From Crambe crambe (taxonomy: Eukaryota > Porifera > Demospongiae > Poecilosclerida > Crambeidae): a stretch of DNA of 64,000 nt. The notes under the pieces were generated by a model, which worked only from the letters and a program-made list of their open reading frames with translations, did not search any database and was not told where the DNA came from. Location of the stretch: assembly GCA_963924555.1 (NCBI GenBank), contig OZ004583.1, positions 8,880,582 through 8,944,581 on the forward strand. The letters run 5' to 3'. The position numbers and the translations under genes were made by a program. This document shows positions 8,137 through 52,344 of this stretch, piece after piece (position 1 is the stretch's first letter; each line of letters begins with the position of its first letter).

Positions 8137-10284
8137 ATGAGCTATCGTACTATCATGCTTACAGTATATATCCTTTTGACACTGGCAACTTCAAAGTTAG
8201 GTAAGTGTATGCAGCTTAGCAATTATAAGCAGCTGCTTGCAATAACTATTATATTTGTGTTCAAGGAGCAGTACAGATAATACAAGGACCAGTAGATGTT
8301 TCAGTTAGAGAAGGAGAAACTGCTAGATTTCCCTGCATATACAATGGAACAAGAAGTATCCCATTCTGGCGGATAAATCACACTGTTTATTCACCTGATA
8401 TGCTGCCACACAGACACATTTATTCCTATCCTGAACAAACTTTGATAGTGAATGATGTTATTTTGAGTCTGAACTCCACTATCTATCAGTGCGAATTTTT
8501 TAGTGCCATCAGTTCTAAAGGTGTCCTTGCTGTGTTTTCAGGTATTGCATGATGTAGCTGCATGCATGTATATGGACTTGCAAGAATTATTAGCTACCCT
8601 TCACTGTAAAAACTAAAGTGTGCGTGGCACACCATATTGTCGCAATGTTCACACAAAAAAGCATTTTGGTGTGAACATTGTGAATATTTGGTGTGCTTTG
8701 CACTAGTTTTACAGTGTTGTATTGACAAATCACTATTATTGTCAGTGGTATACACACACTTTTGGGACAAGGTATATAGCTGATTTTAAGAACTTGTGTA
8801 CTTGCCTGGGGATACCCAAGCTATTATCATTGCTGTAGTTAGTGGTGGCTAACATGTCAATTCACGGCCTTTTTTTATCTATCACAGTAAATGAAATAAT
8901 AATTACTGAAGCAGAAATGGAGAGAATTACTTTGTCCCTTACAAGTAAGATAATCATTTTACTGCATACAGTCTTACAGCTTACTTTTGACAAATGTATT
9001 TGCAATATTCAGTTAGTAATTATGGTAATTATGTTAACCATGCAAAAGCAACTGAATTAATAGCGACAATTTACTTGACTAATGTAGCTTGTGTTTATTT
9101 TCAGTTTGAAATTATGCTATGTTAATCATGCAAAAGTAACCGAATAACAACCATGCAGTTATAGCTAATTATGGTGTTGAATAAGTCAGGAATCAGGATT
9201 TAGCCGTATCTTTCTCTTGGACATGTATAGCAAATGAGGCAGTAACTACAGAATTGGAAAATACTCAGTTTCACTCATCAAGTAAGCAGTTTCTTCATGT
9301 AGCTATGACTGAACACAATTTCATCCTCAGGACTGCATGACATATACACATGGGTTTGTATAATGCAGGCTACCATCGTATGCAGTCTACAATTGTTCCT
9401 AAACTATTAGCTATAACAAAGCTACAATTCTAATTTCAAGATCCATCTTCATGCATTCATGTTATAGGTATCTTCACCAATATAACTGCTGATTTGGAAG
9501 AAGAAGATTGTGGCAGCACCATGGGTTCATGTTCAAATGGGTTCAACAGCACAATAAGTGCTGTGCATAGGCTTACTCTTGGTTTGTTGACAAAAAATCT
9601 AAGTTGATTAGCTATATGAAGTTGTGAAACATATTATTCTGTCCCAAAAACTAATGAATGCATACACACTTTTTCCTGCCTGAAGATGTAGCTACTAGGA
9701 ACTAGATGAGCTGCATGATGGGTGGCCAGAATAACTCAAGTATAGCCAGCTGCAATTAGCCAGATAGCTATAATAGCTAATTATCATCTCCATAAATAAG
9801 TTTCTGGTTGTGCAATGGCCTGCCTGCATGGCCTGTTTGCCCTACATTACATCAAAACAGTCATCTTACGATTGTTGTCATCCTTGTAAATGTAATAGTG
9901 ATCAGTATATCAGTGGTATCTGCTGCTTGTGTCATCATCTTGTTGGCAGTTTTGATTCTATTTGCTTACATGACATGGAAAAGCAGTCACACTAAAGGTA
10001 AAGTGTAAAGCATGGCATTGTTTAGTTAAAGCACATGCAGTCATAGCATCATTTTCTTGTTCTAATTAGCTCAAAATGGTATTGCTCTGGAAGAGAATCC
10101 ATGCTATGAGCAAGTTAATGTAAAAGTGGAAGAGAACCCATGTTACATACCGAGTAGAATTGAAATGGAGGCAAATCTCTGCTATGGTGATAGATGGGGG
10201 GGCATTCAGCTGAAGAAAAATGAAAACACTGAAAATATACCTGGAAATAATAATGACCAAATAATATATGAAACTATTATTTGA
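8137..10284 (+). CDS. Ig-domain receptor with three ENxCY motifs and an ITIM-like tail
   Basis: Inferred exons: 8137-8200 (signal peptide MSYRTIMLTVYILLTLAT), 8266-8541 (Ig), 8888-8944, 9231-9281 and 9468-9581 (stalk), about 9861-9997 (transmembrane) and 10070-10284 (tail). The Ig exon is 276 nt, identical in length to the Ig exon of the gene at 1.1 kb, with ARFPC, PFWRIN and YQC landmarks. The membrane segment reads VVILVNVIVISISVVSAACV onward and ends before TWKSSHTK. The tail carries ENPCYEQV, ENPCYIPS, ANLCYGD and ends IIYETII, an ITIM-like [IV]xYxx[IV] site. All junctions fit except the acceptor before the transmembrane exon, where the phase does not match the preceding donor, so a small exon may be missed. 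Predicted inhibitory or adaptor-recruiting receptor. Confidence 0.75.
8602..8716. mobile_element. Short foldback element (MITE-like)
   Basis: About 50 bp inverted arms: CACTGTAAAAACTAAAGTG at the left end pairs with CACTAGTTTTACAGTG at the right end, and TGTTCACAC with GTGTGAACA near the centre. It lies in an intron of the Ig receptor gene. No clear target-site duplication. Confidence 0.7.
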
Positions 10285-11176
10285 ATGTGTTATTGTTTCA
10301 TGTGCATTGCATGATTATTGCATGCATGTTGCTGTTTATTAATTATTATTAAAATTGAGGAGTAGTGTACTGCATGCATAGGGGAAAAATAATACTTCCC
10401 AAAGGTGATGCCATGTTTTCTATTTTTGCATCTGGCTTGAAAAACTCTAATACTAGGCTATTAGCTATACTATACTAATTTGCAATAGCTTCCCGGTGCA
10501 TGTGGGTAGGGAAGTTAAATATAATCTGCATGGTCTTCACACTAGCTAATTCTACAGGTCATTGATATGGCATGCTGCATAATGGTCCAAGCCTGCACCA
10601 ATTTTCTACCAGTAATTGTTTATAACTATGCATGACTTTCCCAAAAATGATCATAAATGTTTACAAAAATACATGTTTTCATTTTTATCACAGGGCCCTT
10701 TAGCTAGCTAAATGGCCCACAGGTTGCTTAAAAATTATACATAGCTATAGCTAATAAGTAAAGGGTCTCTGTGTATTTAAACATACCACTCTATTCCCAC
10801 TTACCTTTACACCTTATCCGCATCTTGAGGAAGTCTTGATTTGGTCCATGATCCCCTGTTATGTAGTTTGCCATAGGTACTGGGAAGAATCCCAGCCCAA
10901 CACGATCACATCATTGCAATAACCCAAACGATGGAAAGACCGAGTGCAGATATAAGAGGAAAGGGGGTTGGGTGGGAACTGACTTCAGCTGACAATTAAA
11001 TAACCCACTGATAATTAGCCAAAGATATATCTGCATGGTAATATAGTGGCCCAAATAACACTTAGCTACAGTCCTTACATAGCTACCAAGTAGGGAAAAA
11101 CAAAAAACAAAAACAAAACAAAAACAAAAGCAAAAACAAAAACAAAAAACAAAGAAACAAAAATGTAGCTAATGTA

Positions 11177-11517
11177 AGGCCACATCAACTTAATTGTTTA
11201 TCATCCCCTAATTTTTTCTCTTCTGGACTTTTAATTTTATTTCTACTGAGCATGTGCATGGTGTGCTCTATTAAATTCAGGTGTGATTTCAGTGTGATAC
11301 TAGTTTTAGCAGCTATTAAATTATGGTATTTCTTAGGTGTGCAGCTATTATTTTGAACTTCAGCTTTTTTGGTCAAACTTCTGTGTTTTCACTTGTTTGC
11401 TTTTTTGTGGGATAAGATCATGCATAAATAGTTGCCATGGAAACCAATAAAAAATAGCTTCCTCCCGGCCCCTCTCCTATTTGGGATGATAAACAAGTAA
11501 TTAATTTGATGTGGCCT
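11177..11517. mobile_element. 341-bp MITE with AATGTA target-site duplication
   Basis: The left end AGGCCACATCAA is exactly inverted at the right end (TTGATGTGGCCT), with inverted similarity continuing through TTTATCATCCC for about 35 bp. AATGTA flanks both ends (11171-11176 and 11518-11523). No coding capacity. Confidence 0.8.
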
Positions 11518-12232
11518 AATGTAAAATAAATTCAAAGCACATTTCTTCCCTGAGTAGCTATACTGCTGCCATCACGGATCTATAAAGTACCTTCGTCATT
11601 CTCCATGCTATTAACTTAGACCACCTAACTAATCTAAGAACACGTGCAAGCAGATTCTTACTTTAGCTTTCTCACCTGTAGCAGCAAGCCTTAATTGCAG
11701 ACACTGCTAACCAGTGTGTGTACATGCAAGTCTTGTGGCCATCACATTCACTTCAATTGTAAGGTTTGCAAAAAAATGTACCTCTCCCCTTCAGTAAGAC
11801 ATTTGTAAGTAGTAAAGAATACATTGTAGGCTGTTCTGGTAGGCCGGTGTCAGTGATGGTTACTCTGTAGGCCATTCTGGAGGGCCAGTAGGCAGTTCTG
11901 GAGATAGGCCCAAGGGCACTGGTGCCAGTGATAGGTACTCTGTAAGCCATTCTGGAGGGGCACTGGTGCCAGTAGGCAGTTCTGGAAGCAGAACGGAATT
12001 ACCCGCCGTTCGAAATAGCCCCACTTCACCTTACCTCTTCTTGCAGGCCATCCATCTGAGCCAAATACATTTTGTGCAGGTTGAATCATGCCATTTCCTC
12101 CTGCCACCACTTCCTCCACCACAACACATTATCAGTCCTACTGCACCTCCACCACTGCCCCTTCCACTAGCACCACAAGATTAAAGATACTTCCACGTCC
12201 TACCCTATAACTTATTATTGTAATGAATAATG

Positions 12233-12240
12233 TATAAATA
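12233..12240 (+). promoter_or_regulatory. Possible TATA box upstream of the secreted Ig/FN3 gene
   Basis: TATAAATA lies 273 bp before the first ATG of the next gene. This is only a sequence match in AT-rich DNA. Confidence 0.2.
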
Positions 12241-12512
12241 GGTATGATAAGCACAAATAGCTAATATGTGGTGCATGCTGCTCTACTTGGTATGTTGGTT
12301 ACGCTTGAAAAAACAACAAAAAAAAAACAGTTCACATGGGACACTTTAAGGGATAGCATAATTAATTTCAAAGATTAGCTACCAATTCTGCTGCTTCATA
12401 TGTACTTGACACTACATGATCCTTATAAGCCTAATGCCTAAAAGAGTGAGATCCAAATTAGGCTCATGATTCTACTAAACAGAGGTCCTACATAGCTAGC
12501 TTAGATTTGAAG

Positions 12513-16051: not shown

Positions 16052-16368
16052 AAAAGGAACACATCCTTGTGTTAATAGAGTGTTTTCTAACTGTTAGACT
16101 ATTGACATACATAGACATTCTGATGATGCGTATGAAGTTTTGGGGAAAATACTGTATGAAGTTTTGGGGAAAAGTAGCTATGTAGCTTAGCTAGCTTGCT
16201 GTTCAAAGTGAATGTGATTTATGTATAATTACAATCATGATAAAAAGACAGCAGCAGTATAGCTATTTTCTTTGGGAAGGTTACATGTTTACTCTTTTAA
16301 AAAATGCTTATCTTTTCTAAGGTTGTCACAAAGAAGCAATAATGAACAATTAATTTTACATATTATAT

Positions 16369-16608
16369 CAGGGGTGTATCCACCACTCCGGTTGGTCCGG
16401 TTTTTACCGGACCACTTTATTATCCTACCTATGAAACACTGCACACCTTAAGTAGCTACTTTATTTTCATCGTAAGTTGGACATGGAAGTTAGAATACAT
16501 TGAATCACGATCATCCTTTTTTTTCTTTCAAAATGCACAACATGGCCGTCCAAAAATTTCCATGCACAAGCACACCGGACCACTCAAAATTCTGTGGATA
16601 CACCCCTG
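16369..16608. mobile_element. MITE, family with CAGGGGTGTATCCAC ends, 5-bp TSD
   Basis: CAGGGGTGTATCCAC at the left end is inverted at the right end as GTGGATACACCCCTG. TATAT flanks both ends. A related copy lies at 24785-24979 with its own 5 bp duplication (TACAC). Confidence 0.85.
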
Positions 16609-16679
16609 TATATTAATTGTATGGTTCCTTCTAATACTCTGATTTTCATGGGACTGATCAGTATTTCTCTTCTGAAGTC

Positions 16680-17430: not shown

Positions 17431-17603
17431 TCAGCTAATTGTTTCATATATCACTGTCGGGTCATCTTTAGTCTTTCTAGTGTCTTCATAGCACATGTTT
17501 TCTTCTAGTTTGATATTTTCCGCATAGCACGGATTTTCCTCCACCTTTCCATAACAAATATTTTCTTCCAAATCAATAACATTGTGCTGTTTTTTGCAGC
17601 TGT
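17431..17603 (-). CDS. Cytoplasmic-tail exon with ENxCY motifs and ITIM-like end
   Basis: A clean phase-1 acceptor (TATAG) opens a reading frame starting SCKKQHNV, then ENICYGKV, ENPCYAEN, ENMCYEDT, and ends VIYETIS before a stop. It matches tails of the group I receptors. It lies downstream of the receptor at 18.4-20.1 kb, and could be joined to it if the weak donor at 18375/18376 (GTACTT) is used: the phases agree, giving a 466-residue protein. Otherwise it is the orphan tail of a receptor whose membrane exon was lost. RNA data would decide. Confidence 0.65.
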
Positions 17604-18355
17604 CTATAATAAAAATAAGAGCAATTAATATAATAATTATACCATACCAGTGAGTGCTGGTGCCTTATGAAGACTTTTAAGGATCACATGATAAATTGAA
17701 TGGTTGGATGTTTATAAACTTTCAGAGGTCAATATTATCCTGAATTCCTTGCTTAAGCACTAAAGTCAAGTGAAAGGAAAACTTTTATGCTAAATAAAAA
17801 GGCCATGTAGGGTTAGTCTGTACTTTAACCTATAGCAGTTTTTCGTGAACAAACATGCTACCTTTGATAATAATCCCTACACCACTGCCTCCCACCAAGC
17901 TGCTTTAATTGTTCATGTCAGTGTAAAAAGTGTTCTGTTTGGTTTAGGCAGTGATGTAGGGATTATTATTTGAAGGCAGTAAGATGTTTGTCCCTTGTTT
18001 AAGCACAAAAGTCTTTTTAAAAGGCACAATTACAATTAATATTACAGTGAATTAGGCCTATATGTACGTATACATATCTATAAATGTCCCAATTTTTCAC
18101 AATCTACTATTAATGGCTACCTGTTGAATGGCAATGTTTCCAAACCTTGCAGGTTAGTAAAGTACAAAGTGCCAATTAAATTAAAGTTGCTACCATAGCT
18201 ACAGTACATAATGAAAAAAATTAGCTATTATGTCAGCTGAAGGTTTTAATGAATGGTTGAATGGTTAATGTTTATAAACTTTCAGAGCTCAATTTCCTTG
18301 CTTAAGCCATTTTCTAGACAAAAGTGTTTGGGTGGTGGGTGGGGGAATAATTGTG
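17604..18355. other. Intronic/intergenic stretch with inverted and direct repeats
   Basis: AATAATCCCTACACCACTGCCT near 17869 is inverted near 17947 (AGGCAGTGATGTAGGGATTA), forming a foldback of about 95 bp. A TGTTTATAAACTTTCAGAG block is directly repeated near 17709 and 18269. No exon seen. Confidence 0.6.
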
Positions 18356-20071
18356 TTATTCGTACATGGAAGTACCCTCTTGATTATTTCCATGAGGAAT
18401 TACTTCATCTTCTCCATTCTGAACAATGTTTTGGTTTTGGTCAATTTCCTTGAGATGGAAGAAATAACAGACTGCAATGATGATGGTTAGTAGCAGCAAT
18501 GCTACTACACTCAATGATGACACGAGAATGTACAATGTGACAACACTTGACTCATCTGTGCAATATAAAATAATTATTGTGAACATGTATAATATTCAAT
18601 AGAATTAATTCTCATAAAATTAGCTTATGAAACAAACCACCAACGTTTCGACCAGAATACTCTAGCCTTCATCACCCTGTATCACCCTGATGAAGGCTAG
18701 AGTATTCTGGTCGAAACGTTGGTGGTTTGTTTCATAAGCTAATTTTATGAGAACTAATTCTATTGAATTTTTATCATGTTAGCTGAGAATAATAAGCAGA
18801 GATGTATAATATTGTAGGCATTACCTGTAGGTTCTGTATCACTATCACTTGTTATTTCTTCCTGGTCATCGTAAACCATAATTTTGTAAGAACCCACTGT
18901 AGTGCGAATGAAGCATTTGGGGAAGTTACATTGTTGTGTCAGAGTGACAAAGTGCACTGATGTATTGTTCATAGCAGATGTTAGATTTGAAAAACATATC
19001 GATCCATTGAAACTGTGAATGGAGTATGTGGTATCACATGTCACGTAGCAGTACGAGAATTTAGTTAGTTCCACGTCATTCTCATAAGGAGGGCAATAGC
19101 AGTCTCTAGGAACACCAGGTCTGGCTGGCCAGACAAGGGATGGAGTACCTTCTGAAGAGGTGTCTGGAATTGGAATACACACAGCTCCACCCACTGCCCT
19201 GTACTCCATATTATACACACCTATGGGAACGGAAAGCTAACTATGATACACAATAACTGTATGGGAGACTCTATCTTTCTCTAGTTGATACCATGATCTG
19301 ATTCCTGTTCCACATTCAAGCCATTCCTGTCAATTGCTGATACTTTGATGTACATGGCACTGAGTATTTCTCCTAATAAAATGGTCACTTTATCATTGGT
19401 GGAGTTATAAGATACCACATTTTCCATATTATTATTGTTGGGATCATCACTGTAGTTAAAAGCTTCCAGCAAGAAATGGTTGATATCACATAATGAGATG
19501 TTGTAAATCCATCCTATAGTGATGTTATCTGAATCAATTTGTAACTGTTGATAATCTAACTCCAAAATATCTCTTCTTACTAAAGTAGCTCTTCTGCCAG
19601 AGATGGCTGAAGAAAAATCAAGATTATTATCTATCTACGTAGCTAGCTAGCTAGTTAAAGAAGTAAAAACTCACATTCACGCACACTGAGTTGTGTGATT
19701 CTTCCAGGGACCTCAGTGACTGGATCAGTCATGTGATTGATGAGGATACACTGGAAGGTGTAGCCATCAAAGGAGAGATTAATCATGGGAATGGTTAGAA
19801 ATGAGAAACTGTCCACTCTAAAGTAGATGGGCACATGAAACAGATCATACACATTCTCATTGATTCTCCAGAATGGTGCACTTCTCTCTATGCTGAGGTC
19901 ACACTCTATAGGAACATTTGTGTCTTCTTCAGTAGCTGTTTGGTTAGTTTTCACCTGGCAATTCCCTATAGCTAGCTGTAGAGGAACATAATAGAGCAGC
20001 AAGAGTTAGTTATATGGCTACTCACATGAGAGTAAAGTGGCCACACAGTACAGCAGTCTTTGAATCCTCAT
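18356..20071 (-). CDS. Ig-FN3-Cys-rich-Ig-like transmembrane receptor (group III)
   Basis: Inferred exons in transcription order: 20071-20026 (signal, MRIQRLLYCVATLLS), 19965-19675 (Ig; APFWRIN, TFQC), 19606-19292 (FN3-like), 19220-18825 (Cys-rich Ig-like; AVCIPIP, SLVWPARPGVP, CYCPPYEN) and 18555-18356 (transmembrane LYILVSSLSVVALLLLTIII and tail). All junctions are phase 1 and the total is 415 residues. The signal exon is 46 nt, the same length as in the group II genes, showing common ancestry. The short tail ends TSMYE and lacks the ENxCY motifs. A separate tail exon at 17431-17603 could replace it by alternative splicing. A palindrome with hammerhead-like cores lies in the last intron. 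Confidence 0.85.
18594..18768. repeat. Large palindrome with two hammerhead-ribozyme-like cores
   Basis: Two ~79 bp arms are inverted copies with only one or two mismatches around a ~16 bp centre. Each arm contains TGATGAAGGCTAGA, a GTAT loop and TCTGGTCGAAACGTTGG. GGCTAGA pairs with TCTGGTC (allowing G-U), giving a stem II between a CTGATGA-like and a GAAA core, the layout of hammerhead ribozymes known from Penelope-like retroelements and retrozymes. Activity is not shown; stems I and III were not resolved. Confidence 0.6.
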
Positions 20072-20099
20072 TTATGAAGTCCAAAGTTTCTAAACCATG

Positions 20100-21866
20100 A
20101 TCAAGGTGTCTGTGAAATCTGAGCAGGGATGTTCCAAAATTATCCTATACAAAGATACCTTTTAAAGAGTGGAGTAGCTATGCTGCGCTGTCAGTAAATG
20201 GCACTACATGCTGTAGCTATCCATGAATAAATTTCAGGGGGTTTAGCTAGAGACTTTCACGGGAACTATCCTTAACTAAGTTAAAAGGTTTAGTGGTCGA
20301 GGTGCAGGTACATAATAAATATTAGCTAGCTGCTTCTCTTCCCTTACCATATCTGTATAGTTAATACAATCCACAAGCATTTGCAGTTTTAGCTAGCTAC
20401 GTTTCCATTATTTGAGGGAGGAAAAATGATCACTTGTAAAACTAAGTTATAGGAGTGTCCTTTATTGAAAGTTCTGAATTAATATTGACTAATTAGCTAG
20501 TAGCTACTGTACAGGAGTATAGCTCTGAAGTCTTCAGAAAGACACTATAATATTATACATGGAGTCGATCTATTTTTCTGCAACAAAAATTGTCATTTTG
20601 ATTACAGACAGTTAATATAAGGGTCATCAGCATAATTATACACATACATACATACATACTAGCTATAGAAACCACTGAAGGATATTCTAGGTGGCTATCT
20701 AGTTATACTCCCTTCCCTGAATATCATGCATATGAAATCCTTTCAGAACCTGATAGCTACGTATATCGTATATAAATAAGGCCCAGAGGGACAGTGAGGG
20801 TTACTGTACACACTTCAGCATTTTTCATATTAAATTAAATTGAAATGGTCAGGATTCCTGTTATAAAGATCAATCTATAAAAAGCTAAAAAATAAAACAA
20901 GTTACTATGGACTTCTAGCGTGTGAATGGATTGTTAGCTAATCATTATCATTCCACCCAGCATTCCATCATGGACAAATTATGACTGCATTTGAAGATCC
21001 ATGTGCATTGACAGCTTCAACTGACACTTGGAATGGTGCGCGTGCACACATCTGCAAAAGTGATAGTTAGACATTGAGACCCCACTATCTATAGATTGCA
21101 ACCATATATATATACCATGCATAGCTAGCTAGCTTGTTGTAGCTGTCTACCGTGTAGTCTAGCTTCCATATAAGCCAAATGTCCTACTGTGGAGCTAGCT
21201 AAAAAGTTCTACAGTCCTGACATAGCCATATTACATTATCCTAGCCCCTAGCCCCTAGCCCTAGCCCCTAGCCATTACCCCTGATTGTCTTGTAATAAGA
21301 CAACATAAAGCAGGGGGTCCCTGATTCTCTAAAAATATGATCCCCAAATCACTAGACATCTGGGTCTGTGGGGGCCCCAAATCTCTAGTTATTAAGGGGC
21401 CCCAGTCCCCATGTCCCTAGGGATCTAGGGATGGGGGTCCCAAATTAGGGGGTCCCCATATCACTTTGACAAAAACTCAACAATCATGTGCAGTACCAAA
21501 AAAGATAGAAAGTATATCACTTAACAGCATTGGAGTGAGTTAAAGACTCGGATTCAGTGCAGGGAACTAGCTAAATAATGAATGTTAGGAGTGAAATCTG
21601 TGCAAACTTTTGAGATATTTAGGATCAGAAGTTAAAAATCTTATAAAAATCATGTCCATTTGCTGCATCTCTCCAGCTCCATAGGACTTGTACAATCTGC
21701 AGAAGGTACATGAAACAACTGCATTAGTTTGATATGAATACACGTATAGTTAGACACAACTATAGTATTCATCAATGCAATGTCTTTATTAGGAAGGTTA
21801 CACATGTCACATAGACATCAAAGTAATCAAACATCCTAGATCATGAATGTTTATAGCTAATAGTAG
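20100..21866 (-). pseudogene. Decayed copy of a group II (ITI-type) gene, interrupted by a LINE
   Basis: The stretch follows the order of the gene at 30.1-34.1 kb: start of the last ITI exon near 20110 (GAGCAGGGATGTTCCAAAAT), intron text with TTTGAGGGAGGAAAAA near 20413, the edge of the beta-domain exon near 20560 (ATGGAGTCGATCTATTTTTC), FN3 exon text near 20955-21085, then FN3-intron text (TTTATTAGGAAGGTTACACA) to about 21860. The main ITI exon and several others are missing. A LINE begins where the similarity stops. Confidence 0.75.
21240..21480. repeat. CCCCTAG-like short repeats and G/C-tract-rich patch
   Basis: CCCTAG/CCCCTAG units recur at about 21240-21276 and are followed by a patch rich in GGGGGTCCC-like words to 21480. 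It lies inside the decayed group II copy and does not match its intact relative, so it is probably an insertion. Confidence 0.4.
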
Positions 21867-22746
21867 CTACTGAAACTCAAGGCCTGAGATTGAATGCCAC
21901 CAGAACTAAAGCAATGCTGGTGACAAGGAAGAAAAAGCCACTTGTCCTAAAAATAGACCTTGGAAAGAAGGCTATTGAGACTGTGTCCTCAATCAAATAC
22001 CTAGGAATCATCCTCTCCAACGATCTCTCCTGGTCTACACACATTAATGCAACCTGCTGTAAGGCAAAACGCATCATTGGCTTCTTATATCAGCACTTTC
22101 ACCTAGCAGACTCCAATTGCCTTACCCGCCTCTACTATGCTATAGTAGTCCCAATCCTAGACTACGGAGCCAGTATCTGGGATCCACATCACACTACTTA
22201 CATCGGCAAACTGGAGCGGGTACAGGAGCTTGCTGCCAAAGTTGCTACTAGAAGATGGACAGATGATGGCCCCAACCTTGTAAAACAGCTCACATGGCCA
22301 TCATTGAAAATGAGGCGACAATATCTGAAGCTCTGCCTATGCAGGCGAATTCTTCATGGTGGGTCACTAATACCACCAAGCGTTTTCACACCCCACCCTT
22401 CATCCACAGTTCGTCATGTCAACTCATCGCCAATATTTCTTCCTAGAGTGAGAACAAATTACCATCGTGGCTCCTACTTTATAAGTACGATCCCCCTCTG
22501 GAACAATGTCCCAGACGAAATCACGAGCCTAACATCTCACCTGGCTTTTAAGAAACACTTGAAACTACAACTTTTTAAACGCTGACTACAATAGTAACTA
22601 TTACATTTGTTTCATTTTGTTGTTTGTTTGCTCTGTTTTGTTTGACTCTTTATTTAGGCAGCCTTAGTATTAGCCAGTGGCTAGTTGGTTCGCCTTGTGC
22701 CCATTTGGACACTAAAGTTATAAAGAAAAAAAAACAAAAAAAAACT
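21867..22746 (+). mobile_element. 5'-truncated LINE (CR1/Jockey-like RT C-terminus) with A-rich tail
   Basis: An intact 231-codon frame from 21890 starts near ATRTKAMLVT and includes IKYLGIILSNDLSWSTHI, PILDYGASIW, LERVQELAAK and IPLWNNVPDEI, the palm/thumb-to-C-terminal end of non-LTR reverse transcriptases of the CR1/Jockey kind. A ~150 bp 3' UTR ends in an A-rich tail (AAAAAAAAACAAAAAAAAAC). There is no catalytic YADD region, so this is a 5'-truncated insertion. The unbroken frame suggests a relatively young copy. It interrupts the decayed group II gene. Confidence 0.85.
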
Positions 22747-27559: not shown

Positions 27560-28125
27560 GAAGTTACATCCCTATGACTGAACAAAAAAATAAATAATCA
27601 TAGCTATATAGTTTTGCTCAAAAGAAAGGGAATGGCGAGAGCTAGAGAGCTAGCTAGCTACTAACCTATGCTGTTAGTCTTTCTTGAGCACATTGCAATT
27701 CTCAACTGGATCAAAATTTATAGATAAGGAACTGTAGCTATATAGCTATAAGAACAGCCACAGAATTCTTGATATTAGCAATTTGACATTGATATTTGGT
27801 CAAGTTTAATGATTGGTCACCAACAATGTCTGGTTTCTGTAAAAGTGTTCACTGGGTAACTCATCGATTGAGTACACAGTGTTATTTATCTTCCCAAGAG
27901 GAATATTTGAAGTAGCTACCCATAAAGAAACATGGGAATTCTGCAGCACTTCCCTTCAATAACCGATATATCTTCTGGCCCATACTGTAGAATGATATCT
28001 TTATTACAAGCATGAATAGGGGGCTTATTAAAGAAAGAAACAAACAACAACAACAACAAATCCTTTACCAGTATTCACAACTACTCTTATTTCTGGTCCT
28101 ATTATTAGACCACCATGGCCTAAGC
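27560..28125 (-). pseudogene. Decayed copy of the Ig-Ig receptor at 50.8-52.3 kb
   Basis: Intron and stalk text from CCTATGACTGAACAAAAAAA onward, an Ig2 exon remnant at about 27770-27990 (minus strand; matches the SLN-T-YQC and FFVGTSNIP regions of the intact gene with frame-breaking changes) and the 3' end of Ig1 at about 28065-28125 align with 51160-51965. The rest of Ig1 and the signal exon are missing: at about 28120 the copy jumps to sequence matching 52650. It lies directly upstream of the damaged group II gene. Confidence 0.85.
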
Positions 28126-35374: not shown

Positions 35375-37104
35375 CTACTGAATAACTTCATACACAACAG
35401 TCAGGTCATCAGTGTGACCTCTCACATTTTCTCTCAGTTCAATATCTTTTTGAACATTTCCATAGCAGACATTCTTCTCCACTTTGATATCGTTCTTCTG
35501 TCTACTTTCATAGCATACGTTCTCCTCCATGTCCACATCATTTTCATGGTTTCCAGATCCATTATCACAGGTATCTATAGCAGTTTGAAGTCAATAAAGT
35601 TTGCAAAATTCTGCATAATTAGGGTGGCAGGCCTTGCTTAAGTTACAACTCTAACTATACATGTACCTTTTGAATGAAATATCCAAGCTTTATAGGTCAA
35701 CAATAGACAAGCAGTCAAGAAAAGGAAGATGCCAAAAATAGCTGCCACAGATGCACCTATTACTGTTACATCATATATTATAGCCAGTAACAATTTGCTT
35801 AATTCTATTTCAGATTCACAGAGCACACTTATCGCTCAAATCCAGGATGAATTTACTCACCGATGCCGATAATATTCCTTCCTGAGCATGTGGTATTACA
35901 ATCTTCTTTAGGCTCATTGGGCTGAAAATCATAACTCCCTATATTCATTGAGTTATAATGAAATGGTTAGCTAGTGGCCTCTACTATTATTATTATGACA
36001 CTTACTCAGTTCAAAAGTCTGGGAATCTTCTAATTCAAATTCTCTAGCTATTAAAAACAAAATGGAATATTCGAATATTATGGTTAATGGCTGCAATATG
36101 ACACTTAACTCAGCTGCGAAGTCTGGGAAGCTTCTATTTCGAATTCTCTGTCTAATTATATATGGGTACAGTAGGTTATATAACATGAGTGAAAATCAAA
36201 CATTATTTATGGTATAAATCACCTGGAAATACCATGAGAATGGCTATAGAACTCTCGATCTGAAGAATGACACATTGATATGTGGTTGAATTCAGTGATG
36301 TACTGACATTGGCTACTATCAATGTTTGGTTATGTGAACTGTAGGAATGCCCACTGGGTAATTGGTTGACTAAAATTAGAGAGCCGTTTATCTTCCATTG
36401 TGGAATAATTGAGAAAGTCCCAGTGAAGAGACAAGGAAATTCTGCATCACCTCCTTCCTCAATGGAAACATCTTCTGGTCCTTTTAATATCCTTACAGCA
36501 TCTTAAATTACAATAATATTTATTTGAAATTATTTAGCTATATACGTATTATAGCTAGCTCTGAGATCTTATCGCTAAACAAGTCAGACAAGTGAACTAG
36601 TAACGACTAGCTATAACTGTTATTTGGTATGCCCTCGCTCATAATCTATATCTATATGGCTGAGAAGCCTTTATAATATTAATCTCATGCAGCATGTTTA
36701 TACCTGTAGGTACCACATACAAAATTCCAGTTCCACTCGACACTTCTTGAAAGAAGCACTGATATGTAGTCCCATTGTCAGATACTTTCACTGATGAAAC
36801 TCTCAGGATTCCATTGACATATTTATGTCTTGAAGGCAACAATACATGAGATCTGCCATTGATAAGCCACAGTGGAATTTCATTGGTTCCAATATAGCGG
36901 CAGCTGAAATATGCAGTGCCATTTACCAGGACATACTGATTGTTAGGAGAGTCTGTTATGATTATCCTCTGTGCTGAAACTGTTTTCATGAATAATTAGT
37001 AGTTTAATATCATTATACTTTGGTCTAGGCAAACCTGCTCCTGAATTTCTGTGATTAATAAGTAAGAGTATAGTGTAGAGCAACAGAAGACATAGACTTT
37101 TCAT
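35375..37104 (-). CDS. Two-Ig receptor with duplicated stalk exon and ITIM-like tail (group I)
   Basis: Inferred exons: 37104-37035 (signal MKSLCLLLLYTILLLIN), 36979-36704 (Ig1; FSCRY, PLWLING, TYQC), 36501-36223 (Ig2; EFPCLF, PQWKING, TYQC), 36151-36110 and 36047-36006 (duplicate 14-codon stalk exons, REFEIEASQT and REFELEDSQT), 35938-35861 (stalk with two Cys), 35762-35667 (transmembrane GASVAAIFGIFLFLTACLLL) and 35574-35375 (tail). All phase 1; 360 residues. The tail has ENVCYESR and KNVCYGNV and ends TVVYEVIQ, an ITIM-like site. Predicted plasma-membrane recognition receptor with phosphotyrosine or PTB-type signalling, by motif only. Confidence 0.85.
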
Positions 37105-37632: not shown

Positions 37633-40176
37633 TTAGCTAGTAACTCCATATGCAGAGCATTGGGTCAAGTCAAATTCAGTTGAATTGCTTTCATTAGTGT
37701 TGCTTCTCATCTCCTGCAGTTCTTGGACATCCTCGTATTCATGGACACGTTTATTCATTATGCTCTCTTCTAGAGAGGGAGGAGATGATGATGATGGTGG
37801 ATCATTGGCCTCTGCATCTTCCCCATGTAATCCAGGACCACTTGGACTCCTTTAAAAATTTGCAATAACCAGTGGTGGATCCAGGATTTTTTGAAGGGGA
37901 GGGCACATATAAATGGAGGCTCATGGTGAAATCAGCGCGCTTGTGCACGGAAAAAATTTTTTTACCCGGCACTTTTCCTAACCACACCCTTTTGGGGGAA
38001 ACTGATGCTTAGCCAGTCTGCAGCTTACTTGCAAACTATCATGCACCACTGTAATTCTTATAAGTGGCCACGCCAAAAAAGGGGGGAGGGGGCATGTGCC
38101 TGAAATGCCCCCTCCTACGTAGATCCACCACTGATTAATGGATCGATATATTTTGGAAGGAGTTAGCTATGCATAAATTTAAGCTAACTGCTCCAAAGAA
38201 TATTTCATAATATTATGCCATCAGCTAAATAAACTTACATTTGAGTAGAGATCCTGTATTTTCTGAAAATCAATGCTGAGCAAACCAAAACCATTATTAG
38301 TAATGTTGATGCCACTATAATTACGGCTGATAAACCTCCAGCAAAAGCACCGAGAGAGAGAGAAATAGGTGCTTTAACTGAGCACTCTTCCACATTAACA
38401 GATTCTATTATGGTGGGACATGTATCATCTACTTCCAGTTCCATTCCTTGTATGATAACAGAGTGTTTCTTCACTGGCCAGTTATTAAGGATTGATGTTA
38501 GATTACTGTACTGGAATGCAGTGCTGTTGATGTGAGATCTATACGTCACATAGTGAGGGTTGTCTTTGAAGCATTTGAATCTTTCCATAGATACATCTTC
38601 TATGTTGAACTGACAACTGCACTGCTGTTGTATGTATCTGACTACTTCACGAGTGATTATGGTGAGTTTGTTATGAATATCTTCAGCTATCCATTGTAAA
38701 CAGTTTGATACACCATAGAGAAGAGTTTGGAAAGTGACTATACAAAAAGATAGATAAGTAAGTTATGACAATAGCTGTGCATGGGAAAATCACATGCAAG
38801 TCTGTCATACATGTGAGCATGGTAGTGGTGTTCTTTATATACGAGTATGATAATCTTTCTAGCTCAGTAAGTGACAGTTTTATACCTGATGTTGCATGTG
38901 AATCACCAGATCTAGTAATGTCACTACTTTCTAATGTGACGTCAGCAGTACTGCTGTCCTGCTGGTGATCAGAAATAACTATATCATAAGATGTTATAAC
39001 AGTACGGATGAAGCATTCTGGGTAGCGACAGGGAGATGTCAGAGTGACAAAGTGCACTGGTGTATTGTTCATGGTAGATGTTAGATTTGAAAAACATATG
39101 GACCCATTGATGTTGTGAATGGAGTATGTGGTATCACATGTCACGTAGCAGGCTGAGAATTTAGTTAGTTCCACATCATTTTCATAAGGAGGGCAATAGC
39201 AGTCTCCAGGAACACCAGGTCTGGCTGGCCAGACGAGGGATGGAGTAGCCACTTCCCCTTCTGAAGCAGTGTTGGTGTAGGGTATGGGGATACACACTGA
39301 TCCACCTACAACTCCATTCACCACTCTCCATGCATCTGAAATAGAAAAGAAAACTATAGCTATATCTAAGGTTGGTAGTAGCTGCAGATGTGTTTACCTC
39401 CTTTGTATAAGTAGTAGAATGTCCGCCTTGCTCTTCCACACACTACGCCATTGCTGTTAAATGCAGATAGTTTGATGTACTTTCCATGTATCTCTCTAGA
39501 TGGAAGAGTTATCTCATTGATGGTGGAGTTATAACTTGATACTGGTGCCATGTTATTGATTATATTGCTAAAGTTAAAACCTTCCAGTGTGAAACGATCC
39601 ACTTCACATGTTGAGATGTTGTAAATCCATCTTATAGTGATGTTCTCTGAATCAACTCTTATTTGTTGATAATCCAACTCCAAAACATCCCTTCTTACTA
39701 AAATAGGTCTACCAGTAATGGCTGAAGAAAGATAATGATTATCTAGCTAGCTAGCTGGTTAAAGAATTGAGGACTTACATTCACGTACACTGAGTTGTGT
39801 GATTCTTCCAGGAACCTCAGTGACTTGGTCAGTCATGTGATTAATGAGGACACACTGGAAGGTGTAGCCATCAAAGGAAAGATGTATGACAGGAATAGTT
39901 AAAGATGAGTAGCTGTCCACTCTGAAGTAGATGGGGACATGAAACACATCATACACTTTCCCATTGATTCTCCAGAATGGTGCATCTCTCTGTGTGCCAT
40001 GGTTACAAGGAATAACAACATTTGTGCCACCTTCAGCAACTCGAATTTCTTGCTGACATTTCAATCCATTCCCTGTGGAGGCACATGAATAGCAATAGCT
40101 ACATAACTGATATAGCTAGTCTCATCTTACATGATAGCACAGTGAGCAAGCAGTAGAAGTCCAGTGCCCAAATCAT
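37633..40176 (-). CDS. Ig-FN3-Ig-like receptor with SEA-like region and alternative tail
   Basis: Inferred exons: 40176-40131 (signal MIWALDFYCLLTVLS), 40072-39779 (Ig; APFWRING, TFQC), 39721-39398 (FN3-like), 39335-38886 (Cys-rich Ig-like plus Ser/Thr-rich end), 38737-38239 (extracellular membrane-proximal region, transmembrane GGLSAVIIVASTLLIMVLVC, RKYRISTQ) and 37849-37633 (tail). Total 609 residues. The membrane-proximal region has FKCFKDNPHYVTYRS, ILNNWPVKKHSVIIQG and VDDTCPTIIESVN, resembling a SEA-like Cys-paired module I recall from other sponge receptors. The tail has a poly-Ser/Pro stretch and HEYEDVQEL, a YxxV site. The donor at 38238 is ATGTAAGT: if unspliced, ATG TAA ends the protein at once. 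Confidence 0.85.
37870..38133. mobile_element. MITE-like element in the last intron of the SEA-like receptor
   Basis: CAGTGGTGGATCC at the left is inverted at the right as GATCCACCACTG. About 264 bp, no coding capacity, no clear target-site duplication. It lies 20 bp upstream of the final tail exon acceptor. Confidence 0.75.
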
Positions 40177-47100: not shown

Positions 47101-47660
47101 TCCAATAATAATTTTTGTTCTAGATTCTAGATATAGCAGGGCCTTCAATACTGGGAGTCTTCACCAAGTCTGCTTCTGTAGTTACAGGGCTAGGGAGAAC
47201 CAAAAAGGTGTGGTTAGGCAAAAGTGGGTGTGGCCAGGCAAAAATTTCAAGTGTACAGATATTCTTCCACCCCTAATCAAAATTCCTAGATGAAACCCTA
47301 TTAGCTAACATATAATTTCTTTTTACCTGTCAGTGTGGTATTCACAATCAGCAGTACTTTAGGTCCAGTAATTTCACCTTTGACCAATGCACATTGATAG
47401 GTTGATCCATTATCACTTCGCAAAAGTGGATAAATATTGAGATTCTGCTCTATTATTTCATGCCTTGAAGGCAGTTCATCTTGTCTCAAAGGTCTACCAC
47501 CATTAATTATCCAGTGTGGTACAATCCTGCTGCTGCCTGTCACAGGGCATGTGATAATAGCTCTGTCATATAGACTTACTATGATTATTGTCTCATCAGA
47601 CTCCAAAAGACCTGTAATAGCAACTTGGATAAAACTAGCTATGGCTATGTAATTAGGCAT
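44175..47660 (-). CDS. Ig-FN3-Ig-like-FN3 transmembrane receptor (group III)
   Basis: Inferred exons: Ig exon ending 47327 (start either ATG at 47660 or a phase-1 acceptor giving 47611), 46712-46416 (FN3-like), 45464-45117 (Cys-rich Ig-like; ACIPIP, YYDCNLNLC), 44978-44703 (FN3) and 44344-44175 (transmembrane TIAGTVVSAAILTSTIVIIV, short basic tail ending VYYNST). Ig landmarks are IITCPV, PHWIING, DNGSTYQC. No separate signal exon was found. The ATG at 47660 opens MPNYIAIASFIQVAIT, a weak signal-like stretch running straight into the Ig domain, so the 5' end is uncertain. The tail lacks ENxCY and ITIM motifs. Closest relative is the gene at 58.1-61.6 kb, with FN3-like exons of equal length (297 nt). 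Confidence 0.78.
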
Positions 47661-48121
47661 AATGGGTTGGCAAGTAAAGCATTTTTGTACCCTCCATGCT
47701 CAGGCTCTAAGTCTTCACTTTTTGGAGACTGGACATGTATTTTTCTTCCTTATAGCTAGCTGGTTGGTCCCCCCTCTAATGCTTCAATTAAACTGGTTTT
47801 GTTTTGTTTTGTTTTAGTCGGCAAGCAAGTGAAGCAAGCGAGCCACACACTTGTGATGCAAATTGAGATTCGTGATATTATGCTAATTGCACTCATAGTT
47901 TATATTTAATTGCACATGTGCAGACTAGCCATAGTAACACCGTATCTGAAGATGGTAGGCTAGCTTGATTTCTTTCAAAGTGAATTGTAGGTGCTAGGCT
48001 GATTGTCTGTTTAGTAGGCAACCCACTAGGCTTTTGTAAGCATTTTGTGGCTAGCATTACAGGTTCACGCTTCCTACATGCAGCTGCCTGGCTGATACAA
48101 GTAATCTACCACATGATTAAT

Positions 48122-48248
48122 AGGCAATCACATGCTTTTTCGTGCAATTTGGGTATAATTGCATTCAAACTGTTTAAAATTGCACTCAATTCGTGCAATT
48201 ACCTAGCCAGTTTCTCATGCAATTATACCCAAATTGCATGTGATTACA
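48122..48248. repeat. Foldback around TGCAATTTGGGTATAATTGC
   Basis: GTGCAATTTGGGTATAATTG at 48142 is inverted at 48217-48240 (GCAATTATACCCAAATTGCA), and the outer CAATCACATG pairs with CATGTGATT. Central words AATTGCACTCAATTCGTGC are also self-related. Confidence 0.75.
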
Positions 48249-48730
48249 TATACTAATTGGTACGTCAATAGCTAGCGTACATGCTCGATACGCCCAAGCA
48301 CTCGAGTTTCTAGCTATGGACTTGACTCACAATGAATCTTGATGCTCTAAGAGTCCAACGCTACAGAGAGGTGAGAAAGAAAAAGAGAAATACGGTTCAA
48401 AGGTCAATAGCTACTGCGCCTTTGGCTTTAGTTGGTAAAAGGTCGGTCCGCGAGACTACTGTGACTGCATGCAGCATATGACTGCATGCAGCATATGACT
48501 GCAGCAAGCCTAGCCAAAGGGGCCAGAGACTGCTGTAAGCCTAGCCCAGCGAAGAATGCAGGGCTGCAGCAATCCTATTTAACAAGCAAGATACAAGAAA
48601 ACTGCATAGGAAAAGCCTCACTGCATAGGCCTAGCTAGAAGAAACCAGCCCCAATAGCATGCAATTTCAAATACAAAATAAGATTGCCACAGATTTTCTG
48701 TGGGTGCAGGCTAGTTTGTTATTACTACCG

Positions 48731-49792
48731 GGCCTGTCATGCCATATTTGGTCCTGCTAGATTTGGTCCACGAGGACAAGATATGGCAGCCATATTTTGT
48801 CCGATATGGCAGCCATATTTTGTTCTCATGGACCAAATCTGGTTGCAATATTTGGTCCCCTCTTGCCATATTTTGTTCCCCAATAATTATCCCCTTATTT
48901 TTTGTCCAGACCTATTGCAATTTCATCCAGATAGCTAATTACATGTAAGCAGTTATATCTTGCTCAGACAAAATATAACTGCTACATTCTGTCCAGGAGA
49001 CTCTATAATGCTCAGACATTTTTTTATCTGGACGATTATAAATAACAGCTATAGCTATCAGTCAAATCACATGCACATATAAAGTAACTAAGTTTTGCAG
49101 CTGGCTATTTCTGCAATAAATGCAAGGCATTAGCTATCATGTGAGATTCAGTTATTCTACCGATGGCATGTGCAAACTTTATAAGTGAAATTTATTGTAC
49201 AAATATTTTAATTTTAACTTGTACCCTTCACAAAAGACATGGCTAGTTAGCTACTCCACTGAATTCTTGGAACTGAGACAGGATCCACCGCCCCGCAAAA
49301 AAAGCGGGCCTGGGTACGAGACTAGAACCATGTATGAATTCTGAAGACTTCTGCTAATGTATAGCTATTAGAGATATACTTATGTTTGTTGTTGTTGTTG
49401 TTGTTTTGTTGTTTTTGTATGACCCTATTGCATATTGGAAGCTGATATGGCTACTTTATAATTATACAGACAAAATATGGCTGCCGTATGTATTTTGTCC
49501 CACTGGACAATTATGATAACTTGGTCCCCTCCAGATATTAGCTAGAGCACAGATGATAAAAACCAGAGTTGGTATGGAGGGGTTTGAACTTGGTTGAACA
49601 AACTGTTATGATACCCAGAAGACTGCATGCAGTGATCAATAGCTAGTAGCTATATGTATATAGCTAATGCATGCAAAGAGGTCAATCAGGGAAAAGATAG
49701 CACAGTTTTATGAAGAGAGGCTTTGTTCTCAAGAGGACAATTTATGAAAAAATTGCGAATTTTTCCCTGGACCAAATATTTTGTGACAGGCC
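48731..49792. mobile_element. Non-autonomous element with GGCCTGTCA ends
   Basis: GGCCTGTCAtgccATATTTGG at the left is inverted at the right, which reads CCAAATATTTTGTGACAGG and ends in CC. Inside, ATATGGCAGCCATATTTTGT and GGACCAAAT words recur in both orientations (for example 48783, 48804, 49470). About 1.06 kb, no transposase seen. Ends are inferred, target-site duplication not found. Confidence 0.5.
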
Positions 49793-50120
49793 ACAAGCTG
49801 AAATTATCACAAGTATCAAGTGGACAAAATTATGATAACAAATTCGGTCTAGGAGCTGGAACTATCAAACCAGATTTGTATATATAAAAACAAATAACTT
49901 GCATGTTGGTATACTGGTCATCAATGCCAAGAAGATGAAAATTGCACCCATCATAATAACTATAGTATAGTTGTCATCTTGCTCGATAATATAGCTCTTA
50001 TAACTGTAGCTAGTTGTATGGCTATAGTTACGTAGATACTAACAGAATGCACGTGATAGCTAGTCTATACTATACTAGTGAATAAACTCTGCTCACCGTA
50101 AGCCTAAGCCTAAGGTCATT

Positions 50121-50554
50121 CAGGGGGGGTCGGACAAGCTTTTCGCGAAATTGGCTCGCAAAGCTTTGCAAGAATAGGCGCGCAGTAAAGAATGGTTGGA
50201 ATGTAATTAACCTGATGTTTGACAGGCTGTTTCTCCAGCTTTAAGCGTTTGTAGATGATTTTACCTTGGCACAAGAAAGATCTAGTAAGCTAGTTGCTAG
50301 AAAGCAAACCAGTTTTAGCTGGGCTTTGAAATTCAGTTAGCAATTAACTTTTTTCTGAATCTCCAAAACAGGACGGGGATGGATTAGGTTCAGTCGATTT
50401 TCAGAAATCTACCTGTTAGATCTATCTACAGTCCAATTCAAGTTCATTCAAAGCGTACACATCTCGAGGAATAGCAACTTCAAAAAATGTATGAAATTCT
50501 ATGTGAATAAAAAGTGCCTACTCAGCAATAATTGACCTTGTCCGACCCCCCCTG
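50121..50554. mobile_element. 434-bp MITE with 9-bp TSD (Mutator-like)
   Basis: CAGGGGGGGTCGGACAAG at the left is exactly inverted at the right end. AAGGTCATT flanks both sides (50112-50120 and 50555-50563). A 9 bp duplication is typical of Mutator-like (MULE) transposons. Internal sequence is non-coding. Confidence 0.92.
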
Positions 50555-50756
50555 AAGGTCATTAGCTAGCTATGTAGCCAGACCATCTGCGCACTCAAAA
50601 TCATAAATACTGACTAGTTATTCATTATACAGCCACAAAACTATAGTTATCTAGTAGCTAGCTAGCTATGATATTATTATCCACAGTATGACACGTGCAC
50701 TATTATGTGTATTCTTATCAGCTACTAGCCCTAGCTATGAGTATACTTTGTAGCTT

Positions 50757-52344
50757 TTAATAAACAGTTTCATACAAAACTTCAGAATTACTGACATTAT
50801 CAAATTGTTTTCCAACATTGCTGTAACATATATTTTCGGTGAGTTCAATATTCTTTTGTTCAGTGGCATAGCATGGATTCTCCTCCAACCCCACATCAGA
50901 TCCACCAGTGCTGACAGCTATAATAAAAAAAGTACACAAGTTTGAGAGTCAGTCATCTGTCTCCCATGCATAATGCCATTACAGTCTCTCAAGACTAGTA
51001 CATATATCTTGCTATATAGCTACACACTCTATACAAAATGACTGACAACCTCTCTATAATATTATATAGCTATACCTGTTGAATGATAACACTTATAGAC
51101 CAACAAAAAACAAATTATTGGGAAACTGATGATTCCGAAAGCAGCAACTACCAACACACCTATGACTGAACAAAAAAAATAATTATATATAGTTCAAAGG
51201 AAAGGGTATAGCTAGCTATCTTGTGAGAGAAAGAGGTATAGCTAGCTACTAACCTATGCTTATAGTCTTTCTTGAACATATTGAAGCATTGCAATTCACA
51301 ACTGGATCAAAATTGTTGTAAACCAATGTTGAATTTTCAAAAGTAGAATTCCCAAAGTGTATAGGATTACCTATGGAATAAACTGCATGCAATCATAACT
51401 TTTGACTGCAGAGAGAAGTGACTTACTTGGTGTTAAAAGATAAGTAGTGATATCTTCTGTTGTTCCTGAAATAATGTTATTATTATTATAAATAAGAAAC
51501 TGTATACTTTCATACCAGGTCCTGGAAATACAATAAGAACAGCCACAGAACTCTTGATGTTAGCAATTTGACATTGATACTTGGTCAAGTTTAATGATAG
51601 ATTAACATTAGTCACCAACAATGTCTGGTTTCTATAAAAGTGTTCACTGGGTAACTCATCGATTGAATACACAGTGTTATTTATCTTCCAAAGAGGAATA
51701 TTTGAAGTACCCACAAAGAAACAGGGGAATTCTGCAGCACTTCCTTCAATAACTGACGTATCTTCTGGCCCTTCAATTATCCTCACACCTCCTGCAGGAA
51801 TGAGAGGAATAATACTATAGAATGGTATCTTTATTATAAGCAATAAATAGAGTCATGAATAAGCTAACAAAAAACAACAACAACAACAAAAACAACTAGC
51901 TATAATTTCTTTACCTGCATGTACAACTAGTCTTATTTCTGGTCCTAATATTAGAACACCATGGCTGAAAAAAACACACTGATAAGTCGATCCATTATCA
52001 CTCTGCTTCACTGGAGAGATTTTAAGGTTCTGATTTGTAATTTTGTGCCTTGGTGGCAATTCATCTTGTCTCAAAGGTTGACCTCGATTTATTTTCCAAT
52101 GTGGTACAAATCTCCCTGTTTGATTACAAAGACACTCAATTATGGCAGTATTATTGACTTCAACTGTTGTCATCTCAGAGCCATGTGGATAGCAAGTTGG
52201 TTGAGTCACTAGAGGCAAAAAATCAGAAATGCAGTTTCTGTAAGAGCATGTATATACAGGTCTAGTTTAATGAGAATGTTTTAACTTACATGACTTCGTA
52301 GCAAATCCTGTGATCATACAGATAATGCTTGTTATCATGATCAT
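50757..52344 (-). CDS. Two-Ig receptor with ENxCY and ITIM-like tail (group I)
   Basis: Inferred exons: 52344-52290 (signal MIMITSIICMITGFATKS), 52208-51915 (Ig1; PHWKINRGQPLRQDELP, STYQC), 51791-51516 (Ig2; EFPCFF, PLWKIN, KYQC; 276 nt), 51465-51427 and 51370-51254 (stalk, with N-glycosylation sites and Cys), 51159-51076 (transmembrane VLVVAAFGIISFPIICFLLV) and 50917-50757 (tail). All junctions are phase 1; 341 residues. The tail carries ENPCYATE and ENICYSNV and ends VLYETVY, fitting the ITIM pattern. Parent of the decayed copy at 27.6-28.1 kb. A predicted inhibitory or NPxY-adaptor receptor; ligand unknown. Confidence 0.87.

What the first reader, a model, noticed from the sequence alone, without database searches (positions are those of the whole stretch)
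8137..52344. A receptor family with a repeated ENxCY code plus a terminal ITIM-like motif
Four tail exons (10070, 17431, 35375, 50757) share two or three E-N-x-C-Y motifs, some being true NPxY (ENPCY), and each ends within a few residues of a [IV]-[ILV]-Y-E-[TV]-[IV] motif (IIYETI, VIYETI, VVYEVI, VLYETV). ITIMs recruit SH2 phosphatases and NPxY motifs recruit PTB adaptors in other animals. Their pairing in clustered, variable Ig receptors of a probable sponge would be an immune-receptor-like system at the base of animals.
Basis: partly seen in the sequence, partly recalled or inferred. Interest (0 to 1): 0.92.

Follow-up and report, generated by a model that had tools for sequence, protein, structure and literature searches.

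The report
Sponge receptor cluster with ITIM-like tails
A sponge chromosome carries a cluster of cell-surface recognition genes whose inner tails share tyrosine switches like those of inhibitory immune receptors in other animals, with the same tail swapped between different outer parts; worth testing as a self/non-self system, not yet shown to be one.

Summary
Confirmed and refined. All four tail exons are real; each closes an in-frame, GT-AG spliced, phase-1 gene model with a leader, ectodomain and membrane span (A, C, D Ig; B Ig/FN3-like). Genome searches find two more homologous tails (E, F). All six end in an ITIM with tyrosine fifth from the end. The 'ENxCY code' is really [IV]x[LMV]EENxCY with two readings: proline at x gives NPxY (6 of 15 units); a hydrophobic x with hydrophobic +3 gives a second ITIM (B, C, D, E). 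The genome encodes a SHP-2-type phosphatase, the classical ITIM reader, and PTB domains. The tail behaves as a shuffled cassette: A's membrane-tail exons recur on a cadherin receptor (F), while B's and E's ectodomains have paralogues (H, G) with other tails. Most likely the tails dock SHP-2-type and PTB proteins on recognition receptors. Expression, phosphorylation, inhibition, polymorphism and any immune role are untested; endocytosis is the main rival. Ig/ITIM allorecognition candidates are already in print for Hydractinia and Botryllus. New variant of a known kind.

The parts
8137..10284 (+). Gene A: leader 8137-8200, Ig 8266-8541, stalk 8888-8944 and 9468-9581, TM 9899-9997, tail 10070-10284 (NPCY, NPCY, NLCY, IIYETI); 274 aa
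   Evidence: In-frame model, introns GT-AG in phase 1; Ig only sub-threshold in Pfam, I-set 14 bits against cut-off 23.7, but 55% identical to D's second Ig
17431..20071 (-). Gene B: leader 20026-20071, Ig-like 19675-19971, FN3-like 19292-19606, Cys-rich 'CIPIP' exon 18825-19220, TM 18376-18555, tail 17431-17603 (NICYGKV, NPCY, NMCY, VIYETI); 468 aa
   Evidence: In-frame, GT-AG, phase 1; domain names Ig-like/FN3-like are by eye, no Pfam domain passes its cut-off
18121..18196 (-). Decayed TM-like exon with an in-frame stop, between B's TM and tail exons
   Evidence: Translation and donor-like GT after it; 71% identical over 55 bases to the 3' half of E's TM exon, ending at the same donor
35375..37104 (-). 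Gene C: leader 37035-37104, Ig 36704-36973, Ig 36223-36501, stalk 36006-36047 and 35861-35938, TM 35667-35762, tail 35375-35574 (NVCYESR, NVCYGNV, VVYEVI); 344 aa
   Evidence: In-frame, GT-AG, phase 1; first donor GTTTGC is weak; Pfam Ig_3 and I-set over cut-off
50757..52344 (-). Gene D: leader 52290-52344, Ig 51915-52208, Ig 51516-51791, stalk 51427-51465 and 51254-51370, TM 51076-51165, tail 50757-50917 (NPCYATE, NICYSNV, VLYETV); 343 aa
   Evidence: In-frame, GT-AG, phase 1 (which moves one donor of the model by six bases); Pfam Ig_3 and I-set over cut-off; AlphaFold model of second Ig pLDDT 94.6
37633..38399 (-). Gene H, 3' end: TM exon 38239-38399 and tail exon 37633-37849 (HEYEDV, CSAYGVTS), no ITIM; ectodomain paralogue of B with another tail
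   Evidence: In-frame junction; H ectodomain exons 76, 55 and 70% identical to B, TM and tail unmatched
1887..4008 (+). Gene A': Ig frame 1887-2330, TM 2754-2867, then 2935-2998 and a long tail exon 3045-4008; same Ig family as A, unrelated long tail
   Evidence: 3' exons join in frame; a second copy at C5:8.839 Mb (L018), long-tail Ka/Ks 0.37 over 232 codons; Pfam Ig_3 sub-threshold

Best explanation
A clustered family of single-pass cell-surface recognition receptors in a demosponge, very probably Crambe crambe, sharing a transmembrane-plus-tail cassette. The tail is a phosphotyrosine docking strip: one constant C-terminal ITIM ([IV]-[ILV]-Y-E-[TV]-[IV]-x-COOH) and two or three upstream [IV]x[LMV]EENxCY units that read as NPxY when x is proline or as a second ITIM when x and +3 are hydrophobic. 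Proposed mechanism: ligand contact leads a Src-type kinase to phosphorylate the tail; the ITIM(s) recruit the tandem-SH2 phosphatase SHP-2; NPxY units recruit a PTB adaptor (the hydrophobics at -6 and -8 fit the IRS class, recalled). Shown: exons, in-frame models, motifs, cluster, homologous tails, tail exchange, and that SHP-2-type and PTB genes exist. Inferred: expression, kinase, phosphorylation, partner choice, sign of the signal, and a role in cell-cell or self recognition.
For: Six homologous tails, each open to its stop, all ending in the ITIM with hydrophobic -2 (6/6), Tyr (6/6), Glu (6/6) and [IV] +3 (6/6); motif identity 0.68 against 0.12 upstream. Hydrophobic -2 is required by SH2/ITIM consensus, not by YxxPhi. 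Second ITIM in B, C, D, E and P0004, 14-35 residues from the first in B-E. SH2-SH2-phosphatase locus on C18 with PTPN11 as best PDB match for both SH2 exons, 2.1e-31 and 1.3e-57; 8 PID and 17 IRS-type PTB matches. I-set Ig with Kirrel/SYG-1-like cell-recognition Igs among the top, tied rows. Five complete in-frame models A-E.
Against: No RNA, phosphorylation or binding data. The ITIM consensus is loose: 0.13-0.23 expected per shuffled tail, and A and F have just one. A/F tail Ka/Ks is 0.70 and TM 1.2 on five changes, so constraint on the tail as a whole is weak, and one NPCY was lost between them. C has no NPxY. The phosphatase exon matches LAR/PTPRS ahead of PTPN11. SIT (SHP2-interacting adaptor) matches for 4 of 6 tails are below the Pfam cut-off and G's non-ITIM tail gets one too, so I give them little weight.
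Confidence: 0.55

Rival explanations
1. Endocytic sorting tails: NPxY and the terminal YxxPhi act without phosphorylation through clathrin adaptors and set surface level or uptake of ligand or microbes; no SH2 signalling.
For: Both classes of signal are present: NPxY in 5 of 6 reference tails, YETI/YEVI/YETV (YxxPhi) in 6 of 6.
Against: The hydrophobic -2 (6/6) and Glu +1 (6/6) of the terminal motif, and the hydrophobic x of 8 of 15 NxCY units, are not needed for sorting. 9 of 15 units lack the proline.
Confidence: 0.2
2. Positive phosphotyrosine scaffold: SHP-2 and GRB2-type adaptors drive adhesion or growth signalling; the tail is ITIM-like in sequence but not inhibitory.
For: The only SH2-SH2-phosphatase locus I followed up is SHP-2-type, which in other animals often acts positively (recalled); Y-x-N, the GRB2 motif (recalled), occurs in C, D and F. 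The same tail on a cadherin (F) suits adhesion.
Against: Y-x-N is absent from A, B, E and P0004; no assay of either sign.
Confidence: 0.15
3. Inherited but largely unconstrained tails: the motifs are shared by descent and shuffling, and little or nothing reads them.
For: A/F tail Ka/Ks 0.70 and motif gain and loss; decayed copies lie nearby (Ig relic C5:8908322-8908549; relic TM exon).
Against: The paralogues are old (Ig Ks 0.8-1.0 for D/E, D/C, A/A', D/G), yet the terminal motif is 0.68 identical against 0.12 just upstream; 24 of 25 Tyr lie in motifs; no stop in any of the six tails.
Confidence: 0.1

Closest known systems
Hydractinia Alr family, allorecognition complex (cnidarian)
   Same: Clustered Ig-superfamily single-pass receptors, pseudogenes nearby, and ITIM/ITAM motifs reported on candidates (PMC12065747 passages; PMC11067881 passages).
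   Different: No Alr sequence was compared. Here polymorphism and genetics are unknown, NPxY units accompany the ITIM, and the tail also sits on FN3-like and cadherin receptors.
Botryllus fester co-receptors, FcoR (tunicate)
   Same: Ig receptors with ITIM or core Yxx[ILV] tails in a cluster (PMC12065747 passages).
   Different: FcoRs are described with a sushi domain and three Ig domains; A, C, D, E have one to three Ig and no sushi domain was found in A, C or D by Pfam (E not scanned).
Vertebrate inhibitory Ig receptors (KIR, LILRB, SIRP; recalled)
   Same: Type I, Ig ectodomain, one or two ITIMs, SHP-type phosphatase in the genome.
   Different: No orthology claimed; C-terminal position of the ITIM, NPxY units and cassette shuffling differ.
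[quoted passage not shown]
   Same: Sponge Ig-domain surface proteins linked to grafting (PMC2248247 passage).
   Different: Tails here stop 53-71 residues after the TM-tail junction, so no kinase domain.
LKENPAYGT-repeat receptor tails of the same genome (C17)
   Same: Tandem L-x-E-N-P-x-Y units; in L072 behind a TM-bearing frame.
   Different: No terminal ITIM in the two tails read (L072, L073); Thr/Pro-rich stalk in L072; 15 strong rows on C17.

Membership tests
ITIM-bearing Ig receptors | [SIVL]xYxx[ILV] in the cytoplasmic tail | tested here: met
   6 of 6 reference tails plus P0004
ITIM-bearing Ig receptors | Single-pass type I protein with Ig ectodomain | tested here: met
   Models A, C, D, E by exon anatomy and Ig homology; Pfam over cut-off for C and D only. 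B and F carry the tail but are not plain Ig receptors. Leaders and TMs judged by eye
ITIM-bearing Ig receptors | Phospho-dependent recruitment of SHP-1/SHP-2/SHIP | not testable with these tools
   A SHP-2-type gene exists; binding unknown
ITIM-bearing Ig receptors | Inhibits co-triggered activation | not testable with these tools
   Needs cell assay
NPxY / PTB ligand tails | N at -3 and P at -2 of Tyr | tested here: met
   6 of 15 NxCY units in five of six tails; the other 9 units and all of C fail the proline
Hydractinia Alr family | Sequence homology to Alr1/Alr2 | not tested
   Alr sequences were not fetched; Huene et al. not held
Allorecognition receptors (general) | High polymorphism, genotype predicts fusion or rejection | tested here: inconclusive
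   P0001/P0004, 74-86% and 75% identical to E, may be a divergent haplotype; no population or graft data
ITAM receptors (gene G as activating partner) | Yxx[LI]-x(6-12)-Yxx[LI] | tested here: not met
   Gap is 13 in G and J; K has lost the first motif; J and K also fit ITIM
PDZ-ligand tails | Conserved hydrophobic C-terminal residue | tested here: not met
   Last residues I, S, Q, Y, T, I

The most novel reading that the evidence does not exclude
C5:8.84-9.12 Mb is a sponge self/non-self recognition complex: clustered, haplotype-divergent I-set receptors in which ectodomains are combined with a small set of exchangeable phosphotyrosine tails (ITIM/NPxY, YEEL-YGML, long tail), read by SHP-2 and PTB adaptors. 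That would place ITIM-type control of recognition receptors in sponges and give sponge allorecognition a locus.
Probability: 0.2. Interest if true: 0.92.

Novelty: new variant of a known kind. Interest (0 to 1): 0.62.

Why it matters
Sponges reject grafts, but the review I read in passages says the candidate allorecognition proteins of sponges, cnidarians and ascidians are not conserved, while cnidarian and tunicate candidates share ITIM-type signalling (PMC12065747). Receptors with ITIM tails in a sponge that also has a SHP-2-type gene would extend that signalling logic to sponges and offer a physical locus where segregation with fusion or rejection can be tested. The tail exchange between Ig, FN3-like and cadherin receptors would show how signalling tails spread between receptor families.

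Tried and rejected
PDZ reading of the C-terminus: rejected on residue variation. ITAM reading of G: gap 13, first motif lost in K. P0001/P0004 as a sister-species orthologue: not excluded, but less likely because none of the other 119 listed rows for F's cadherin exon exceeds 59% identity (2050 passed, 120 listed). Positive selection on Ig domains: nine pairs, Ka/Ks 0.24-0.77, none above 1. ENPCY as a DNA word: not enriched. PDB sequence search with D: nothing at E 0.1. VIA-align: top rows tied within 1 Z; no Alr structure among the 50 rows shown, which is no test. Foldseek proper was not run. Sponge Ig receptors with ITIM or NPxY tails in print: none seen (listings, and passages of some hits); that library holds open-licence papers only.
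Full report
WHERE. The window is C5:8,880,582-8,944,581 of a 143,139,886-base genome in 119 contigs. Five contig lengths (C5 9.494, C13 7.569, C15 7.245, C18 6.568, C20 6.341 Mb) equal Crambe crambe chromosomes 3, 10, 12, 15 and 17 (9.49, 7.57, 7.24, 6.57, 6.34 Mb; PMC12166358, passages). The paper gives 143.20 Mb and 124 scaffolds, so the held copy is slightly smaller. The species is an inference from lengths.

RELATIVES. Three tail queries return six homologous tails, all on C5: A-D, E (C5:8,952,838) and F (C5:4,873,038). E is also a complete in-frame model, three Ig exons, 439 aa. Other rows of those calls: an ENPAYGT-repeat tail and its kin on C17, an NTPase-like frame on C1, and C5:6.41 Mb with a stop. 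An Ig query gives 22 matches; the ten best (E under 1e-9; two overlap one decayed copy) all lie at C5:8.84-9.11 Mb. The public protein search returned tails identical to E and F and parts of D and C, and one further tail, P0004, on a contig of the same stated length (2,571,004) as P0001, an Ig pair. P0001 is 77, 74 and 86% identical to E's three Ig domains, P0004 75% to E's tail. For F's cadherin exon the database has a 100% entry with two members, and no other of the 120 listed rows exceeds 59%. That favours a divergent haplotype or an absent paralogue of the same species over another species, without proving it.

THE CODE. In N-x-[CS]-Y (15 units in six tails) x is position -2: P in 6, I/L/V/M in 8, E in 1. 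-6 is hydrophobic in 15/15 and -8 in 14/15, which I recall as the IRS-type PTB ligand pattern. With hydrophobic x and +3 the unit is an ITIM: ICYGKV (B), VCYGNV (C), ICYSNV (D), LCYGII (E), LCYGIL (P0004); A and F fail at +3. So five of seven tails have two ITIMs, 14-35 residues apart in B-E. The terminal motif is the constant part (0.68 identity against 0.12 upstream). Between A and F one NPCY was lost and one NECY gained; tail Ka/Ks is 0.70 (66 codons, 22 changes), TM 1.2 on five changes; TM and tail exons are 95 and 90% identical, the intron between them 46%.

READERS. PF00017 gives 135 matches and PF00102 183 (150 candidates scored in each; lower bounds). On C18, minus strand, two SH2 stretches precede a phosphatase domain within 1.9 kb. 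The SH2 exons hit PTPN11 best in the PDB (2.1e-31, 1.3e-57); the phosphatase exon hits PTPRS/LAR first and PTPN11 after. PTB domains: 8 PID and 17 IRS-type matches. Presence is shown, binding is not. Sub-threshold SIT matches in B, C, E, F and also G get little weight.

TAIL EXCHANGE. (i) A and F: near-identical TM and tail exons, but F's follow cadherin repeats (seven stretches), Ig and EGF domains in an in-frame GT-AG chain of the last four exons; one acceptor there lacks a pyrimidine tract, and I saw no other cadherin end in the next 7 kb fetched, which holds transposon pieces. (ii) B and H: ectodomain exons 76, 55, 70% identical, TM and tail unmatched; H's own tail joins in frame; a stop-bearing TM-like exon lies between B's TM and tail. 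(iii) E and G: Ig 70-72% and 84% identical, tails different. G's tail (YEEL-x13-YGML, NPKY) has relatives J and K at C5:9.115 and 9.096 Mb. I considered G an activating partner of E, but the ITAM gap is one too long and J and K also fit ITIM.

FUNCTION. Phosphotyrosine docking of SHP-2 and PTB proteins on recognition receptors 0.55; endocytic tail 0.2; positive SHP-2/GRB2 scaffold 0.15; no reader 0.1. Nothing here shows expression, inhibition, polymorphism or an immune role; Ig Ka/Ks is below 1 in all nine pairs tested.

KNOWN. ITIM/ITAM motifs on clustered Ig allorecognition candidates are reported for Hydractinia and Botryllus (PMC12065747, passages; Hydractinia cluster, and divergent Alr1 alleles kept as separate scaffolds, PMC11067881, passages). 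Sponge Ig kinases and adhesion molecules upregulated after grafting are mentioned in PMC2248247 (passage). I saw no sponge Ig receptor with such tails in nine searches of an open-licence library. Verdict: real; a known kind with a new tail design and tail exchange, in a sponge.

Noticed in passing
G000 C17:2.56-2.66 and 3.41-3.60 Mb (L072, L073): A second receptor cluster whose tails carry tandem LKENPAYGT (NPxY) repeats in varying number: 15 strong rows, two in what looks like one frame, three with a stop.
   Followed up: partly
G000 C5:9,096,416-9,115,644 (L015, L078-L080): Three genes (G, J, K) share another Tyr tail, YEE[LP]...YG[MI]L plus NPKY or NLNY; G has E-like Ig domains, J and K a different Ig.
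   Followed up: partly
G000 C5:1.42-1.66 Mb: About 30 SH2 matches in one stretch of the same chromosome: a tandem SH2-gene expansion.
   Followed up: no
G000 C12:0.07-0.38 and 2.5-3.2 Mb, C9:2.6-3.4 Mb, C13:3.6-3.9 Mb: Large clustered expansions of tyrosine phosphatase domains, 183 matches as a lower bound.
   Followed up: no
G000 C1:678354-679730 (L083): Three IRS-type PTB matches in one 1061-residue open frame.
   Followed up: no
window 18582-18780: Inverted repeat with 93-base arms, 95% complementary, 13 bases apart, inside gene B's intron; looks like a small transposon.
   Followed up: partly
window 27741-27968 (-): Decayed Ig exon of the C/D/E type with several stops.
   Followed up: no
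window 21857-22582 (+): Open frame that looks by eye like the end of a retroelement reverse transcriptase; no Pfam match at E 1.
   Followed up: no
window 61889-62233: Long GT/CA dinucleotide repeat.
   Followed up: no
window 3045-4008 and L018: Long, Tyr-rich tail exon on gene A', with a second copy at C5:8.839 Mb, Ka/Ks 0.37; no Pfam match for the frame.
   Followed up: partly
L076 (C5:4874601-4881600): Transposon pieces by eye (CCHC gag-like and transposase-like frames) downstream of gene F.
   Followed up: no
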